Part shown: piece after piece, positions 15,337 to 38,185 of the stretch
Layout of the letters: every line of letters starts with the position of its first letter
Position numbering within the stretch: position 1 is the first letter of the stretch
Origin: Streptomyces cynarae
Lineage (GTDB): Bacteria > Actinomycetota > Actinomycetes > Streptomycetales > Streptomycetaceae
DNA length: 64,000 bases
Assembly: GCF_025642135.1 (NCBI RefSeq)
Contig: NZ_CP106793.1
Location: forward strand, 1,526,001 to 1,590,000
Reading direction: 5' to 3'
The notes under the pieces: generated by a model
What the model was told of the DNA's origin: nothing
The model's database searches: none
The model's input: only the letters and a program-made list of their open reading frames with translations
Position numbers and translations under genes: made by a program

Positions 15337-16165
15337 GCACCTTGCCGGCGCGGACGGCGTCGAGGAAGGCGAGCGCGGCCTGCTCGATGCCGCGTTGCCG
15401 GGCCACCGGCACCCAGTCGCCGCGCCGGCGCACGGTCGGCTGGCCCTTGTGGTCGACGATCTCGGCGAGGTTGAGCACCTGCCGCTTGGAGTCCTGCCCG
15501 GAGACCTCCAGGATCTCCTCGGCGGAACCGCTCAGCCGGTTCATCACGCCGAGCGCGGTGAATCCGTCACCGGACAGCTGGAGCACCACGTGGTGCAGCA
15601 GTCCGCCCTCGACGCGGCCCCGCACGGTCACGTCGTCGACCGTGCCGGGGACCAGGAACCGCAGTGTGTCGACGACGTGGATGAAGTCGTCGAGGATCAT
15701 CTTGCGCGGCTCCTCGGGCAGTCCGACGCGGTTCTTCTGCATCAGGACGAGGTCACGCGGGTGGTCGGCGCACTGCACGTATCCGGGTGCGTGACGCCGG
15801 TTGAAGCCGACCGCGAGGCTGATGTTCCGCTCCTCCGCGAGCCGTACCAGCCGCTCGGAGTCGGCGAGTTCGTAGGCGAGCGGCTTGTCGACGTACGTCG
15901 GTATTCCCGCCTTGAGGAGCCGGGTGACGATCTCGGGGTGGGTGGTGGTGGGCGTGTGCACGAACGCCGCGTCGAGGTCCTGTGCGAGCAGCGCGTCCAG
16001 ATCGGCATGCCTCTGCCCGAGCGGGAGGTGGAGGCTGTCGCCGACGCGGTGGAGGGTGGCGGGGGTGCGTGTCTGGAGGTGCAGGTCGAGCCCGGGCTGC
16101 AGGGCGAGCACCGGCAGATAGGCCTTTTGCGCGATGTCGCCGAGTCCGATGCAGCCGACCTTCAC
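15254..16165 (-). CDS. Gfo/Idh/MocA-family oxidoreductase
   Basis: 303 residues. MKVGCIGLGDIAQKAYLPVL is the N-terminal NAD(P)-binding motif and YVDKPLAYE is the EKP-type signature of this family. It starts with GTG at 16165, overlapping the stop of the upstream FAD monooxygenase gene as GTGA, so the two were probably translated together. Its 3' end overlaps lnt on the opposite strand by about 80 bases. Substrate unknown. Confidence 0.85.
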   Translation of the reverse strand: MKVGCIGLGDIAQKAYLPVLALQPGLDLHLQTRTPATLHRVGDSLHLPLGQRHADLDALLAQDLDAAFVHTPTTTHPEIVTRLLKAGIPTYVDKPLAYELADSERLVRLAEERNISLAVGFNRRHAPGYVQCADHPRDLVLMQKNRVGLPEEPRKMILDDFIHVVDTLRFLVPGTVDDVTVRGRVEGGLLHHVVLQLSGDGFTALGVMNRLSGSAEEILEVSGQDSKRQVLNLAEIVDHKGQPTVRRRGDWVPVARQRGIEQAALAFLDAVRAGKVLSANDALATHELCERVVTAVRERAVAP

Positions 16166-16452
16166 GGGGTACTCCTAGGAATTGCCGACGATGCCTGGTC
16201 CGCAGCATACGGCTGCTGCGGTGGCCGCCAGTCGGCGATGCCTTCGAAGCCGCGCAGGAGCAGCGCGGGTGATGCCTTCGACAGCGCGGCGATCGCGGCG
16301 TCGCGTACGGCGGTCCCGACGCGGCCGCTCATCATGTTCAGGCGGGCGGCCCGGACGGCCCGGCGGGTGACGGCGGTCGTCCGGGGCAGCCGGACGGCCG
16401 TGTACGCGGCTAGTGCCGCGCCAGGCAACGTTTGCCCGTCAAGGAGCGGCGT

Positions 16453-16499
16453 CCGGTGCGTGCTCTGGGGGTACCCCCTGCTCGAAGAGCTTGGGGGAG
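16453..16499. repeat. First copy of a 47-bp repeat within the element
   Basis: It starts CCGGTGCGTGCTCTGGGGGT and ends in TTGGGGGAG. The middle pairs as GGGGGTACCCCC and CTCGAAGAGC palindromes. An identical copy lies at 16543-16589. Confidence 0.9.
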
Positions 16500-16542
16500 T
16501 GCCGGCCGGAAGTCCTCGTACTGGATGTACTTGGGCTTTCGG

Positions 16543-16589
16543 CCGGTGCGTGCTCTGGGGGTACCCCCTGCTCGAAGAGCTTGGGGGAG
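16543..16589. repeat. Second copy of the 47-bp repeat
   Basis: Identical in sequence to 16453-16499 with the same orientation, 90 bases apart. Both copies are self-complementary and contain GGTACC. Confidence 0.9.
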
Positions 16590-17616
16590 CGTGCCGGCGT
16601 CGCGACGGGGCGAACGTTGCCTGTTGCGGCACTAGGTCGTCGCAGTGGTGGGCGAGCACGATCGCGTCCTCGATGGCCTGGTTGCCGCCCTGACCCAGCG
16701 TCGGTGGCATGGCGTGCGCGGCATCGCCGAGAAGGGCGACCCTGCCGCGGTGGTGGGCGGGCAGCGGCTCGGCGAGGTGGTGGACGTCGTGGCGCAGCAC
16801 GTCCTCGGGGCGGGCGGCGGCGAGGACGGCGGGGATCGGGTCGTGCCAGTCGCCGAACCGCCGCAGGAGTTCGGCCTTCTCGTCGTCGGACGCGCGCTGC
16901 CCGGCGGGCACGACGGCCGCCGCGTAGGCGTAGACCCGGCCGTCCTTGAGCGGATGGGTGCCCCAGATGCGGCCTCGGCCCCAGGTCTCGTGCGAGGCGA
17001 AGGCGGGTCCGGGCACGGGGATCATGACGCGCCAGGTGGTGAATCCGGAGTAGACGGGCCCCGGATGGTGCGGGAACAGTGTCCGTCGTACGCCGGAGTG
17101 GATGCCGTCGGCGGCCACGACCAGTTCTGCCTCAAGGTCTCCGTCGGAGGTGGTGACCCGGGCCGGGCGGTCCGTGTCGCCGGGGTCGGCGAGGCTAGCG
17201 GCGGCGGCCGTGCGGATGGCGTCCGGCGGCAGCAGGGCGGCCAGGCCGTCGATGAGGGTGGCCCGGGGCAGCAGGACGAGCGGTCCGCCGAAGCGCTCGG
17301 CCGCGGCAGCTGCGCCGGTCCGGGTGAGCCAGCGTCCGCCGGGGTGCGCAGCCCGCCGTCACCCTGCCAGGCGGCGAGGTCGCGGAGCGCGTGGCCGATG
17401 CCGATGACGTCCAGTGCGCGCAGGGCGTTCGGGGCGAGGGAGATGGCCGCGCCGACCGGCTCGAGGGAAGGAGCGCGCTCCAGCACGGTGACCCGGAGCC
17501 CGCGCAGGTGCAGGGCCGCGGCCGCGGTGAGGCCACCGATGCCGCCGCCGATCACGATTGCCCGCGACTGCTGTGCCATGGCTGCTCCTCAAGTCCCACG
17601 ATGCTCCGGCGGGTCC

Positions 17617-35471: not shown

Positions 35472-36803
35472 CTAGACATAGCTCCGCCCCGGGCCCGGCC
35501 CCAGGGCGGAGGCGACCGCGTCCGCCAGGGGCCCGGTGTCGTCCGCGGTCAGGGTCGAGACGGTGATCCGCATGCCGGGCGGCGCGCTCAGCCGGAAGCG
35601 GGCGCCGGGCGCGACGGCCCAGCCGGCGTGCAGCAGCCGGGCCACCGCCCCGGTCTCGTCGGGCACCGGCACCCACACGTTCATGCCGCTGACGCCGTGG
35701 GCCGTGACACCGCGCTCGGCGAGCGCGTCGATCAGCGCGCAGCGGCGCCGCCCGTACTCCGCAGCGATCGCCCGTGCGTCCACCGCGCCGTCCGTCCACA
35801 GCCGGACCACCGCACGCTGCACGAGCAGGCTCACCCACCCGGGCCCGAGCCGCTGCCGCCCGCGTACCCGGTCAACGGTGACGGTGTCCCCGGTGAGCAC
35901 CGCGAGTCGCAGGTCGGGGCCGTACGCCTTGGCGACCGAGCGGACTAGGGCCCAGTGCCGGGTGGCCCCGGCGAGGGGGTGGAGGGGCACGTCGACGATC
36001 CCGTGGCCGTGGTCGTCCTCGATCAGCAGGGCCCCCGGATGTTCCCGCAGCACGGCTCGCAGGGCACGCGCGCGGGGGGCGCTCACCGCGGCGCCGGTGG
36101 GGTTCTGCGCCCGGTCCGTGACGATGAGGGCACGAGCGCCGGCCTCCAGGGCCGCCCGTACGGCGTCGGGCAGCGGCCCCTCGTCGTCGACGCCGACAGG
36201 GACCGTGCGCAGTCCGAGCGCCGGCACCAGGTCGAGGGTCCTGCCCCAGCCGGGATCCTCGACGGCGACGGCGTCCCCGGTCTTCAGATGGGCGGCGAGC
36301 ACCCGTTCGACGGCGTCGAGCGATCCGGAGACGACGGCGAGCGGGCCGTCCGGCACCCCGTCGGCGTCCAGCGCGGCCCGCGCGAGCCGCGTCAGCTCCG
36401 GTTCCACGGCGACGTCGCCGTACAGCACCGGTGCCCGATCGCCCTCGGCGGCGGCCGCCGCGAACGCCTCCGCGAGCGGGGGCAGCAGCGCCGGATCCGG
36501 GTTACCGCTCGACACGTCGCGTACACCTTCGGGCACGTCCACACGGATGTGGTCCCGGCCCGTCGTGGCCGGCGCGGGCCGTACCCGGCTGCCGCGGCGT
36601 CCGGCGGTCTCGATGACGCCGCGCTCCCGGAGGATGCGGTACGCGGCCGCGACGGTGTTGGGATTGACGCCCAGCTCGACGGCCAACTCCCGTTGCGGCG
36701 GGAGCAGTTCGCCCGGCTCCAGCTCGCCGGTACCGACCGCATGCTCGACGCCGGCCGCAATCTCCGCTGCGCGCCGCCCTGTGAACCGATATCCTTCTAG
36801 CAC
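35472..36803 (-). CDS. MocR-type GntR/aminotransferase regulator
   Basis: 443 residues, GTG start at 36803. GntR-type helix-turn-helix about residues 10-75 (LPPQRELAVELGVNPNTVAAAYRILRERGVIET) is fused to a fold-type I aminotransferase domain with RSVAKAYGPDLRLAV as the PLP-Lys region. In this family PLP binding controls DNA binding, as in PdxR. It is divergent from two FMN split-barrel genes of the pyridoxamine phosphate oxidase superfamily, so regulation of these is likely. A perfect palindrome lies between them. Confidence 0.88.
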   Translation of the reverse strand: MLEGYRFTGRRAAEIAAGVEHAVGTGELEPGELLPPQRELAVELGVNPNTVAAAYRILRERGVIETAGRRGSRVRPAPATTGRDHIRVDVPEGVRDVSSGNPDPALLPPLAEAFAAAAAEGDRAPVLYGDVAVEPELTRLARAALDADGVPDGPLAVVSGSLDAVERVLAAHLKTGDAVAVEDPGWGRTLDLVPALGLRTVPVGVDDEGPLPDAVRAALEAGARALIVTDRAQNPTGAAVSAPRARALRAVLREHPGALLIEDDHGHGIVDVPLHPLAGATRHWALVRSVAKAYGPDLRLAVLTGDTVTVDRVRGRQRLGPGWVSLLVQRAVVRLWTDGAVDARAIAAEYGRRRCALIDALAERGVTAHGVSGMNVWVPVPDETGAVARLLHAGWAVAPGARFRLSAPPGMRITVSTLTADDTGPLADAVASALGPGPGRSYV

Positions 36804-36814
36804 AAAGCAGATTA

Positions 36815-36826
36815 TGCACTAGTGCA
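36815..36826. promoter_or_regulatory. Palindrome between MocR and the FMN split-barrel operon
   Basis: TGCACTAGTGCA is a perfect 12-bp palindrome. It is 11 bases from the MocR start and 13 bases before the divergent ATG 36840. It is the best candidate for the MocR operator, though very close to the start codons. Confidence 0.55.
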
Positions 36827-36839
36827 ATGGAGGACGCAC

Positions 36840-37538
36840 ATGCAGGGGGCGCACATGCAGGGGAACCGACAGACGACACCGCGGCCCGCCGTCTACACCC
36901 CGACCGACCGCACCGTCCCCACGCGCTCCGCGGGCCGTGCGTCGTACGACAAGGAACTGGTGCACGCGATACTCGACGAGGGCTACGTCTGCCATCTCGG
37001 CTTCGTCCGCGACGGCGCCCCGGTCGTGCTGCCCACGCTGTACGGCCGGGTCGGCGAGCGGCTGTACGTCCACGGTTCGACCGGCTCGCGTCCGCTGCGG
37101 ATGACCGGCCAGGCCGACCCCGGACTTCCGGTCTGCCTGACGGTGACGCACGTCGACGGCCTGGTCCTGGCCCGCTCGGCCTTCCACCACTCGATCAACT
37201 ACCGCTCCGTGGTGGTGCACGGCATCGCCCACCAGGTCACGGACCCCGAGGAGAAGCGCACGGCCCTGGACGCGCTGGTCGACCACGTCGTGCCGGGCCG
37301 CTCACGCGACTCCCGGCCCGCCGACAAGAAGGAGCTGGCCGCCACCGCCGTGATCCGCCTCGACCTGGACGAGGTCTCCGCCAAGCTCCGCACCGGCGGC
37401 GTGAACGACGAGCCCGAGGACCTCTCTCTCCCCCACTGGGCCGGCGTCGTCCCGGTCCGCAGGGAGTACGGGACCCCGCTCCCGGACGCCGGCCTGGCAC
37501 CCGGCACCGGCCTGCCGGACTACCTGGCGGCCCTGTGA
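36840..37538 (+). CDS. Flavin split-barrel protein (PNPOx/NimA-like)
   Basis: 232 residues from ATG 36840 behind GGAGGA; an ATG at 36855 is an alternative. DKELVHAILDEGYVCHLGFVRDGAPVVLPTLYGRVGERLYVHGST with later HHSINYRSVVVHG is the flavin-binding split barrel found in the NimA-like group of the pyridoxamine phosphate oxidase superfamily. A reductive role is likely but unproven. It overlaps the next gene by TGATG. Divergent MocR gene. Confidence 0.85.
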   Translation: MQGAHMQGNRQTTPRPAVYTPTDRTVPTRSAGRASYDKELVHAILDEGYVCHLGFVRDGAPVVLPTLYGRVGERLYVHGSTGSRPLRMTGQADPGLPVCLTVTHVDGLVLARSAFHHSINYRSVVVHGIAHQVTDPEEKRTALDALVDHVVPGRSRDSRPADKKELAATAVIRLDLDEVSAKLRTGGVNDEPEDLSLPHWAGVVPVRREYGTPLPDAGLAPGTGLPDYLAAL

Positions 37539-38185
37539 TGCTGATCCATCCCTGGGACGCGCCCCGCGACGACACCGAGTGGCAACGCTGGCTCGCCGCC
37601 CACGACTTCGGGCAGCTCGCCGTGAACGGATCACCGGGCGAGCCGCCTTACGTGCAGCCGCTGCACTTCGCGTACGACGCCGGGCGCGGCGAGGCCGTCA
37701 CCCACCTCGCCCGTCCCAACCCACTCTGGACCGCTCTGGAGGCGAACCCGCGGGTACTGCTCAGCGTGGTCGACGACTATGTGTATGTGCCCGGCCCTTG
37801 GCAGGCCCCGGCCGACACCCCGTCCGAGCAGGGCGTACCCACGAGTTTCTACGCGGCCGTCCAGCTCCGGTGCATCGCCCATGTGGTGGACGACGCGGCC
37901 GGCAAGGCGGAGCTGCTGAACCGCCAGATGGGCCACTTCCAGCCGGAGGGCGGCTCCGCGCGGGCGGCGGCGGGCGAGGCGCCGTACGGCCGCATGCTGT
38001 CCGGGATCCGCGGTCTGCGACTCGAAGTGACCGATGTCCGGGCGAAGTTCAAGTACGCGAGCCACATGGCGGAAGAGGTGCAGGACCGGATCGTGGCGGG
38101 CCTCGAGGCTCGGGGCGGGGTGCGGGACGCGGCGGCCCGGGAGCACCAGTTGCGCAGGCGGGCAGTGTGGTCCCCGGACCGGTGA
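37538..38185 (+). CDS. PaiB-like FMN-binding protein
   Basis: 215 residues. It starts at the ATG overlapping the upstream stop (TGATG). HLARPNPLWTALEANPRVLLSVVDDYVYVPGPW and RQMGHFQPEGG match the PaiB family of FMN-binding split-barrel proteins, some of which are called negative regulators. Cotranscribed with the preceding split-barrel gene under the divergent MocR. Confidence 0.82.
   Translation: MLIHPWDAPRDDTEWQRWLAAHDFGQLAVNGSPGEPPYVQPLHFAYDAGRGEAVTHLARPNPLWTALEANPRVLLSVVDDYVYVPGPWQAPADTPSEQGVPTSFYAAVQLRCIAHVVDDAAGKAELLNRQMGHFQPEGGSARAAAGEAPYGRMLSGIRGLRLEVTDVRAKFKYASHMAEEVQDRIVAGLEARGGVRDAAAREHQLRRRAVWSPDR

What the first reader, a model, noticed from the sequence alone, without database searches (positions are those of the whole stretch)
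16410..16635. Non-autonomous element inserted in frame in an FAD monooxygenase gene
The element (16414-16631) has 24-bp inverted ends matching at 21 positions and is flanked by CTAG on both sides. Removing it with one CTAG rejoins the coding sequence as HCDDL-AAYTA, so insertion is proven by internal logic. Insert plus duplication is 222 bases or 74 codons, and there are no stops in the reading frame across it. Ends plus CTAG duplication suggest mobilisation by an IS5-family type transposase. A frame-neutral MITE could create a new protein loop.
Basis: seen in the sequence. Interest (0 to 1): 0.75.

Follow-up and report, generated by a model that had tools for sequence, protein, structure and literature searches.

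The report
Mobile hairpin sharing unrelated transposase ends
A small non-coding mobile DNA piece sits inside a (separately broken) enzyme gene; its ends match one type of jumping gene, but its folded middle is shared with many small elements whose ends match a different type, which suggests that one hairpin has changed movers.

Summary
A 220-bp element (16413-16632) interrupts an FAD-monooxygenase gene; the closest orthologue is continuous there and close copies lie elsewhere in the genome. (1) The likely mover is IS630 family, not IS5: a 1.5-kb IS on the second contig has matching ends and an IS630 transposase. The duplication is best read as TA inside CTAG. (2) The host gene also has a one-base frameshift against 14 of 14 orthologues compared, so a working protein with a new loop is unlikely. 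(3) The interior is the real finding: a covarying hairpin core (18 of 45 pairs changed on both sides), matched in 77 of 121 same-genus genomes (own included), lying between IS630-type ends in some elements and IS5-type ends in others. One strand folds better in 94 of 94, 54 of 54 and 36 of 36. In named genomes, 36 of 45 genes running open into an element end on its CTAG. Literature searches returned no description. Core function is unknown; I favour a selfish hairpin that changed transposases.

The parts
16413..16632 (+). Whole non-autonomous element (220 bp); + is the strand that folds better
16411..16412 (.). Left copy of the duplicated TA (inside CTAG 16410-16413)
   Evidence: TA reading
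16633..16634 (.). Right copy of the duplicated TA (inside CTAG 16632-16635)
   Evidence: TA reading
16413..16437 (+). Left terminal inverted repeat, IS630 type; 23 of 25 positions as the right end of the IS in L061
   Evidence: counted by eye
16608..16632 (-). Right terminal inverted repeat; 24 of 25 positions as the left end of the IS in L061
   Evidence: counted by eye
16446..16603 (+). Shared hairpin core (101 nt in the uninterrupted form; here enlarged by two short hairpin repeats). The covariance model itself places its match at 16468-16567 (46.5 bits)
16502..16546 (+). Apical stem-loop of the core with the conserved CGTACTGGAYGTACTTGG tip
16474..16497 (+). First copy of a separate 24-nt interspersed hairpin repeat, in the left arm of the core
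16564..16587 (+). Second copy of the same 24-nt repeat, in the right arm
17022..17579 (-). N-terminal open frame of the interrupted FAD monooxygenase gene; leaves the gene frame at the frameshift near 17.34 kb
16162..17118 (-). C-terminal open frame of the monooxygenase, read through the element (74 extra codons)

Best explanation
This is a MITE moved in trans by an IS630-family transposase. Shown: its ends match a 1.5-kb IS630-family IS on the same genome's second contig, and it lies at TA in a CTAG site of a monooxygenase gene that is uninterrupted in a near relative. Shown: the interior is not a shrunken IS630 gene but a hairpin core that also lies between IS5-type ends in other elements of the genus. 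Inferred: IS630 transposase cuts and pastes the element at TA, preferring CTAG. Inferred: many CTAG sites that tolerate insertion are the TAG stop codons of genes, so copies tend to do little harm, and this one is a rarer hit in a coding frame. Inferred: the hairpin is kept by selection acting on one strand (RNA, or single-stranded DNA), and the core has changed ends at least once between two transposase families. What the folded strand does is not known; I take it to serve the element's own persistence rather than the host.
For: IS with matching ends: L061 536-2035, 23/25 and 24/25 end positions, CTAG on both sides; transposase NF033545 156.7 bits, PF13358. Family in the own genome. Empty site. 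Same core with IS5-type ends: 133 classed cores = 76 IS5-type, 44 IS630-type, 13 with a mover not identified; full IS5-family ISs bear D/E-like ends. Structure: 96.3% of 2608 cells paired, 18 of 45 pairs changed on both sides, 0 of 500 shuffles as high. Strand bias: G-U 542 cells against A-C 21, 222 against 20 outside six nearly fixed wobble pairs; by pair, G-U leads in 24 and A-C in 6; + strand folds better in 94/94 and 54/54 and 36/36. Stop codons: 36 of 45 open genes running into set-2 elements end on the CTAG, 20 of 28 in set 1.
Against: No transposition was observed. One intact IS630-type partner was found in the own genome, with 1-2 end differences. Repeated end changes are not proven: the tree needs 12 changes (least possible 2), starred branches force 4 for the IS630 label, but the AU test does not reject one IS630-type clade (p 0.172) and the bootstrap had not settled. 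Shuffle controls do not allow for relatedness. DNA parameters give the same strand preference, so RNA is not singled out. Open genes run in on the foldable and unfoldable sides 21 to 24 in set 2 and 9 to 19 in set 1, which speaks against a sense 3'-UTR role. In set 1, 7 of 28 such genes run into the element in a sense frame rather than stopping at CTAG. A strand-biased mutation process could also make G-U exceed A-C.
Confidence: 0.8

Rival explanations
1. The element is an IS5-family MITE that duplicates CTAG.
For: CTAG on both sides; sister elements with the same core do have IS5-type ends.
Against: The ends match an IS630-family IS, and none of the IS5 elements whose ends could be read had such ends.
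Confidence: 0.05
2. The in-frame insertion makes a working monooxygenase with a new 74-residue loop, as with Rickettsia palindromic elements.
For: 222 nt, no stops in that frame. In-frame MITE insertions are known (passages of PMC10969869, and PMC2229807).
Against: One-base frameshift upstream against 14 of 14 orthologue loci compared; 4 of 6 frames are open; by chance about one length in three keeps frame.
Confidence: 0.07
3. The core is a passive passenger: an old palindrome whose arms are kept alike by hairpin-templated repair or gene conversion, with no selected function.
For: Compensatory changes in arms can come from templated mutation (recalled); the two 50-nt repeats in this copy are 98% alike, which suggests conversion.
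Against: Templated repair should remove wobble pairs, yet three tandem U-G/G-U steps are kept in 46-57 of 58 cores, and G-U exceeds A-C 222 to 20 outside them.
Confidence: 0.3
4. The hairpin acts as RNA in 3' untranslated regions (processing site or mRNA stabiliser), like NEMIS/Correia RNA.
For: Very stable RNA fold (-158.5 kcal/mol here, z -12.7); many copies lie at stop codons. RNase III and Neisseria elements: passages of PMC2229807.
Against: No preference for the foldable orientation relative to the incoming gene: 21 to 24 in set 2, 9 to 19 in set 1. My odds are lowered from 0.2 to 0.15 because the set-1 count, which I had first overlooked, points the wrong way.
Confidence: 0.15

Closest known systems
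RUP of Streptococcus pneumoniae (proposed to be mobilised by IS630-Spn1)
   Same: Small non-autonomous element, ends like an IS630-family IS, TA-containing targets, ends paired with one another in the folded form (passages of PMC3049150, and PMC2229807).
   Different: RUP is 107 bp and AT-rich. This one is 220 bp and sits at CTAG, and its core is shared with elements that have IS5-type ends.
Correia / NEMIS elements of Neisseria
   Same: MITE whose transcript would form a long stem-loop (passages of PMC2229807).
   Different: No sequence comparison was made; no RNase III data here; two end types from two transposase families here.
Rickettsia palindromic elements (RPE)
   Same: Small palindromic elements found in frame inside protein genes (passages of PMC10969869 and PMC2229807).
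   Different: In set 2 only 9 of 139 usable flank sides have a gene running open into the element without the CTAG as its frame-0 stop; and this host gene is frameshifted anyway.
Sister MITEs of the same genus with IS5-type (D/E) ends
   Same: Same core, same CTAG preference.
   Different: Different ends and mover.

Membership tests
MITE | Small (50-500 bp in PMC10969869), no transposase gene | tested here: met
   220 bp; no transposase frame
MITE | Terminal inverted repeats | tested here: met
   28 nt, 89%
MITE | Target duplication and empty site | tested here: met
   TA/CTAG flanks; orthologue without insert
MITE | Multi-copy, interspersed | tested here: met
   own genome; matches to the element (core and the 24-nt repeat included) in 38 of 61 genomes
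IS630-mobilised | Ends shared with a full IS630-family IS | tested here: met
   L061, 23/25 and 24/25
IS630-mobilised | TA duplication | tested here: inconclusive
   This copy lies in CTAG and cannot tell TA from CTAG. In set 1, 6 of 51 two-sided TA cases keep TA with a changed outer base, end types pooled; one IS630-type copy of the own genome has CTAG left and CTAA right
IS630-mobilised | Moved in trans by that transposase | not testable with these tools
   needs a mobilisation assay
IS5-mobilised | Ends shared with an IS5-family IS | tested here: not met
   the IS5 elements whose ends could be read (L190; at least eight of 30 loci) have other ends
Known RNA family (Rfam 15) | Match to a curated family | tested here: not met
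   three miRNA matches far below gathering score in the four loci searched: L001, L068, L069, L084
REPIN / RAYT elements | Dependence on a REP-associated tyrosine transposase | not tested
   no search for RAYT genes was made

The most novel reading that the evidence does not exclude
The hairpin core is the lasting unit of selection: one strand-specific folded RNA or ssDNA that has spread through the genus by repeatedly changing its terminal repeats, and so the transposase family that moves it (IS630, IS5 and perhaps an unidentified third). The shared CTAG target, which flanks most copies, would be the meeting point at which ends are exchanged.
Probability: 0.35. Interest if true: 0.8.

Novelty: new variant of a known kind. 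Interest (0 to 1): 0.6.

Why it matters
MITEs are usually described as worn-down copies of an IS (so the passages of PMC10969869). Here the same folded core lies between ends of two unrelated transposase families and keeps its pairing by compensatory change, so the core rather than the ends looks like the inherited thing. If that holds, it gives a tractable case for how non-autonomous elements change movers, and for whether a MITE interior can have a selected function. The CTAG-at-stop-codon pattern also gives a simple account of how such elements can spread without much harm.

Tried and rejected
Considered and rejected: IS5 as mover of this copy; the insertion as a functional protein loop; a curated RNA family (four loci); a sense 3'-UTR role as main function. 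Orientation by replication arm is not used as a signal: 89 of 145 agree, P 0.008, but G007 gives 1 of 11, G142 1 of 7, G141 0 of 2, G064 2 of 6 and G093 8 of 18; copies are not independent, the origin was assumed at mid-contig, several contig lengths were rounded, hits were typed from a capped list, and hits on small contigs and opposite-strand repeats of one hit were left out.

A first flank count gave 45 genes running in on the foldable side and 65 on the other. With stricter rules the excess stays in set 1 (9 to 19) and is nearly gone in set 2 (21 to 24).

Led nowhere: full ISs beside 12 solitary ends (no convincing IS; the best pairs were MITE-sized, 98-163 bp); a parent IS for end type B; literature on the element or core. 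Searches were for known relatives. Only passages of PMC10969869, PMC3049150 and PMC2229807 were seen; of all other papers only listings and abstract starts.

Dropped or limited rows: 110 core hits became 104 after removal of duplicates, 5 of them without a parsed end pair, leaving 99; some parsed boundaries are doubtful (L131, L144, L159, L169, L177, L185). Alignment A1 holds 58 of the 60 distinct cores (L139 and L159 left out). Set 2 used 80 of the 118 loci held; the other 38 were read only (39 cores, 36 with parsed ends, of which L304 and L325 look wrongly bounded) and show the same two kinds of ends. In one search, 7 set-1 loci were unclassed and set-2 rows with inserts in the right arm were dropped, leaving 133 (78 and 55). 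One search is superseded (a faulty filter left out set 2, and one end was misclassed). One search skipped 119 of 198 set-1 sides and 11 of 150 set-2 sides as too short.

Full report
What is there. Between 16413 and 16632 lies a 220-bp element with inverted ends (28-nt arms, 89%), flanked by CTAG. It interrupts, on the minus strand, a gene whose two open pieces match FAD-dependent monooxygenases (PF01494; the NCBIfam matches are below their cut-offs). Of 150 same-genus genomes (own included) searched with the C-terminal frame, all 150 have some match. The best outside the own genome, G168, matches query residues 2-162 (98%) and 236-310 (87%) in adjoining DNA, so the codons between are the insert. 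The site reads CTCG in G168 and CTAG here, both leucine codons.

The gene is not a clean host for a new loop. Its N-terminal part is in another frame. All 14 orthologue loci compared (those fetched, own left out) have one base more than the own gene near window 17.34 kb, 12 with that single gap and two (L200, L202) with further gaps. A sequencing error cannot be excluded. Four of the six frames of the element are open, so an open frame is no sign of use.

The mover. Two exact end motifs on the second contig (308 kb, probably a plasmid) bound an IS of 1500 bp (L061 536-2035) with CTAG on both sides. Its 379-aa protein is an IS630-family transposase (NF033545, 156.7 bits, cut-off 100; PF13358). 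Its ends match those of the element at 23 and 24 of 25 positions. An internally deleted relative lies on the same contig (L062). IS630 elements duplicate TA (recalled; a TA target is stated for RUP in PMC2229807). Of 99 set-1 elements with parsed ends, 51 have TA on both sides: 45 CTA/TAG, 4 CTA/TAA, 1 CTA/TAC, 1 TTA/TAG; 27 have it on one side and 21 on neither (end types pooled). Change of CTAG towards CCAG or CTGG is frequent (5 CTA/TGG, 4 CCA/TAG).

The core. The interior does not resemble the IS630 gene. It is a hairpin matched in 77 of 121 same-genus genomes, own included (blastn, E<=0.001, at most 7 candidates scored in most genomes), in 15 plasmid records (Streptomyces 12, Embleya 2, Kitasatospora 1) and in 118 stretches of the named genome collection before the scan stopped at its limit; the 80 listed are Streptomyces and Kitasatospora. 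With the covariance model, 6 of 296 genomes of a phylum-wide sample match, all of the window's genus (strict filters lose weak matches). In 58 distinct cores, 96.3% of 2608 cells form standard pairs, 18 of 45 pairs have changes on both sides and none of 500 shuffles reaches any of the five measures; slid controls pair 52% at most. The shuffles do not allow for relatedness. Three tandem U-G/G-U steps (columns 12-13/91-92, 16-17/87-88, 27-28/76-77) are kept in 46-57 of 58 cores. Outside these six pairs G-U cells number 222 and A-C cells 20; in the end repeats 115 and 21. Pair by pair, G-U leads in 24 and A-C in 6 (P 0.0014). For 94 distinct set-1 and 54 distinct set-2 elements of 140-230 nt the same strand folds better in every case, by a median of 37.3 and 38.8 kcal/mol, and in 36 of 36 further elements. 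DNA parameters give the same direction, so RNA and single-stranded DNA are not told apart. No Rfam family reaches its threshold in the four loci searched. In the window the model finds this copy (46.5 bits, E 2.1e-8) and nothing else below E 0.2, apart from the same place on the other strand.

Different ends. Set 1, set 2 and the remaining named loci show the core between two unrelated kinds of ends: GTGCCGC..CAGGCAACGTT (IS630; L061) and GG.C.TGT-type ends. The latter occur on full IS5-family elements: L190 2504-3390 in a Streptomyces plasmid record, whose two open pieces match NF033580 (139 and 162.5 bits, cut-off 110), and at least eight of 30 IS5 loci read (L344, L346, L350, L352, L354, L355, L356, L367; three more, L347, L351 and L368, look alike; the other 19 gave no convincing end pair). 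The likeness is of the outer part: 13-16 of 20 positions to the nearest MITE end in the six scored in register. A third kind (GGGGGTGTCTGAYGGATCTCCG) has no identified mover; G062 has 15 pairs of such ends 143 bp apart. In the own genome the core occurs with IS630-type ends (L001-L007, L005 lacking its right end), D-type ends (L012) and C-like ends (L008). On a tree of 133 cores the three end classes need 12 changes (least possible 2; shuffled mean 43), and well-supported branches force at least 4 for the IS630 class, but the bootstrap had not settled and the AU test does not reject a single IS630-type clade (p 0.172). So at least one change of ends is needed, more are suggested, repeated change is not proven. 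A possible route is the CTAG itself: in L374 an IS5 element abuts a truncated core element at one CTAG and another element's end at the other, and in L132 an IS630-type left end abuts another element's end at a CTAG while the right end is of the other type. This route is inference.

Where copies sit. In set 2, of 45 flanking genes that run open into an element, 36 end on the TAG of the CTAG (frame 0), where one third would be expected if frames were equal; these are 36 of 139 usable sides, the rest being genes pointing away, genes that ended earlier and non-coding flanks. In set 1 it is 20 of 28; 7 of the other 8 run on in frame 1 as sense codons. Insertion at a C-TAG stop codon keeps the stop. 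Removal of harmful insertions by selection would give the same picture as targeting. The copy in this window is one of the less usual ones, inside a reading frame.

Inside this copy. Two 24-nt hairpin repeats sit in the two arms of the core, within a 50-nt repeat that is 98% alike. The 24-mer has 43 sites with up to 3 mismatches in the own genome against 0 for the reversed control, and some copies of the element lack one or both. L009 looks like a deletion between the two repeats.

What is known. RUP with IS630-Spn1 is the nearest described case for the mover, Correia/NEMIS for the long RNA stem, Rickettsia palindromic elements for in-frame insertion (passages). The literature searches, in an open-licence full-text library, listed no paper on this element or core as far as titles and abstract starts show; subscription journals and ISfinder were not searched.

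Verdict. A MITE, most likely IS630-moved, in a gene that appears broken twice. The unusual part is the shared, strand-specific hairpin core between ends of two transposase families.

Noticed in passing
16474-16497 and 16564-16587; 43 sites in the own genome: A separate 24-nt hairpin repeat (CCCCCTGCTCGAAGAGCTTGGGGG) is scattered through the genome, also outside the element; its own way of spreading is unknown.
   Followed up: partly
L193 (G168 orthologue), about 1220-1260: The empty-site orthologue has its own roughly 36-nt hairpin-like insert in the same monooxygenase gene, at another place.
   Followed up: no
L374 (G000 second contig 205500-208700): An IS5 element of about 913 bp abuts a truncated core element at one CTAG and another element's end at the other.
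   Followed up: partly
16 genomes: Core orientation follows the chromosome arm in 89 of 145 copies (P 0.008), very clear in G090 (15 of 18) but opposite in G007 (1 of 11) and G142 (1 of 7); unexplained.
   Followed up: partly
sets 1 and 2: The flanking CTAG often has decayed towards CCAG on the left or CTGG on the right, perhaps a repair or selection bias against CTAG.
   Followed up: no
L062 (G000 second contig 36400-37900): Internally deleted relative of the IS630-type IS, with both ends recognisable.
   Followed up: no
L061 1726-2016 minus strand: The IS630-type IS carries a second frame of 96 aa without Pfam or NCBIfam match.
   Followed up: no
L079: A core-like hairpin with a quite different stem but the same GTACTGGACGTAC tip, suggesting a wider family than the model covers.
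   Followed up: no
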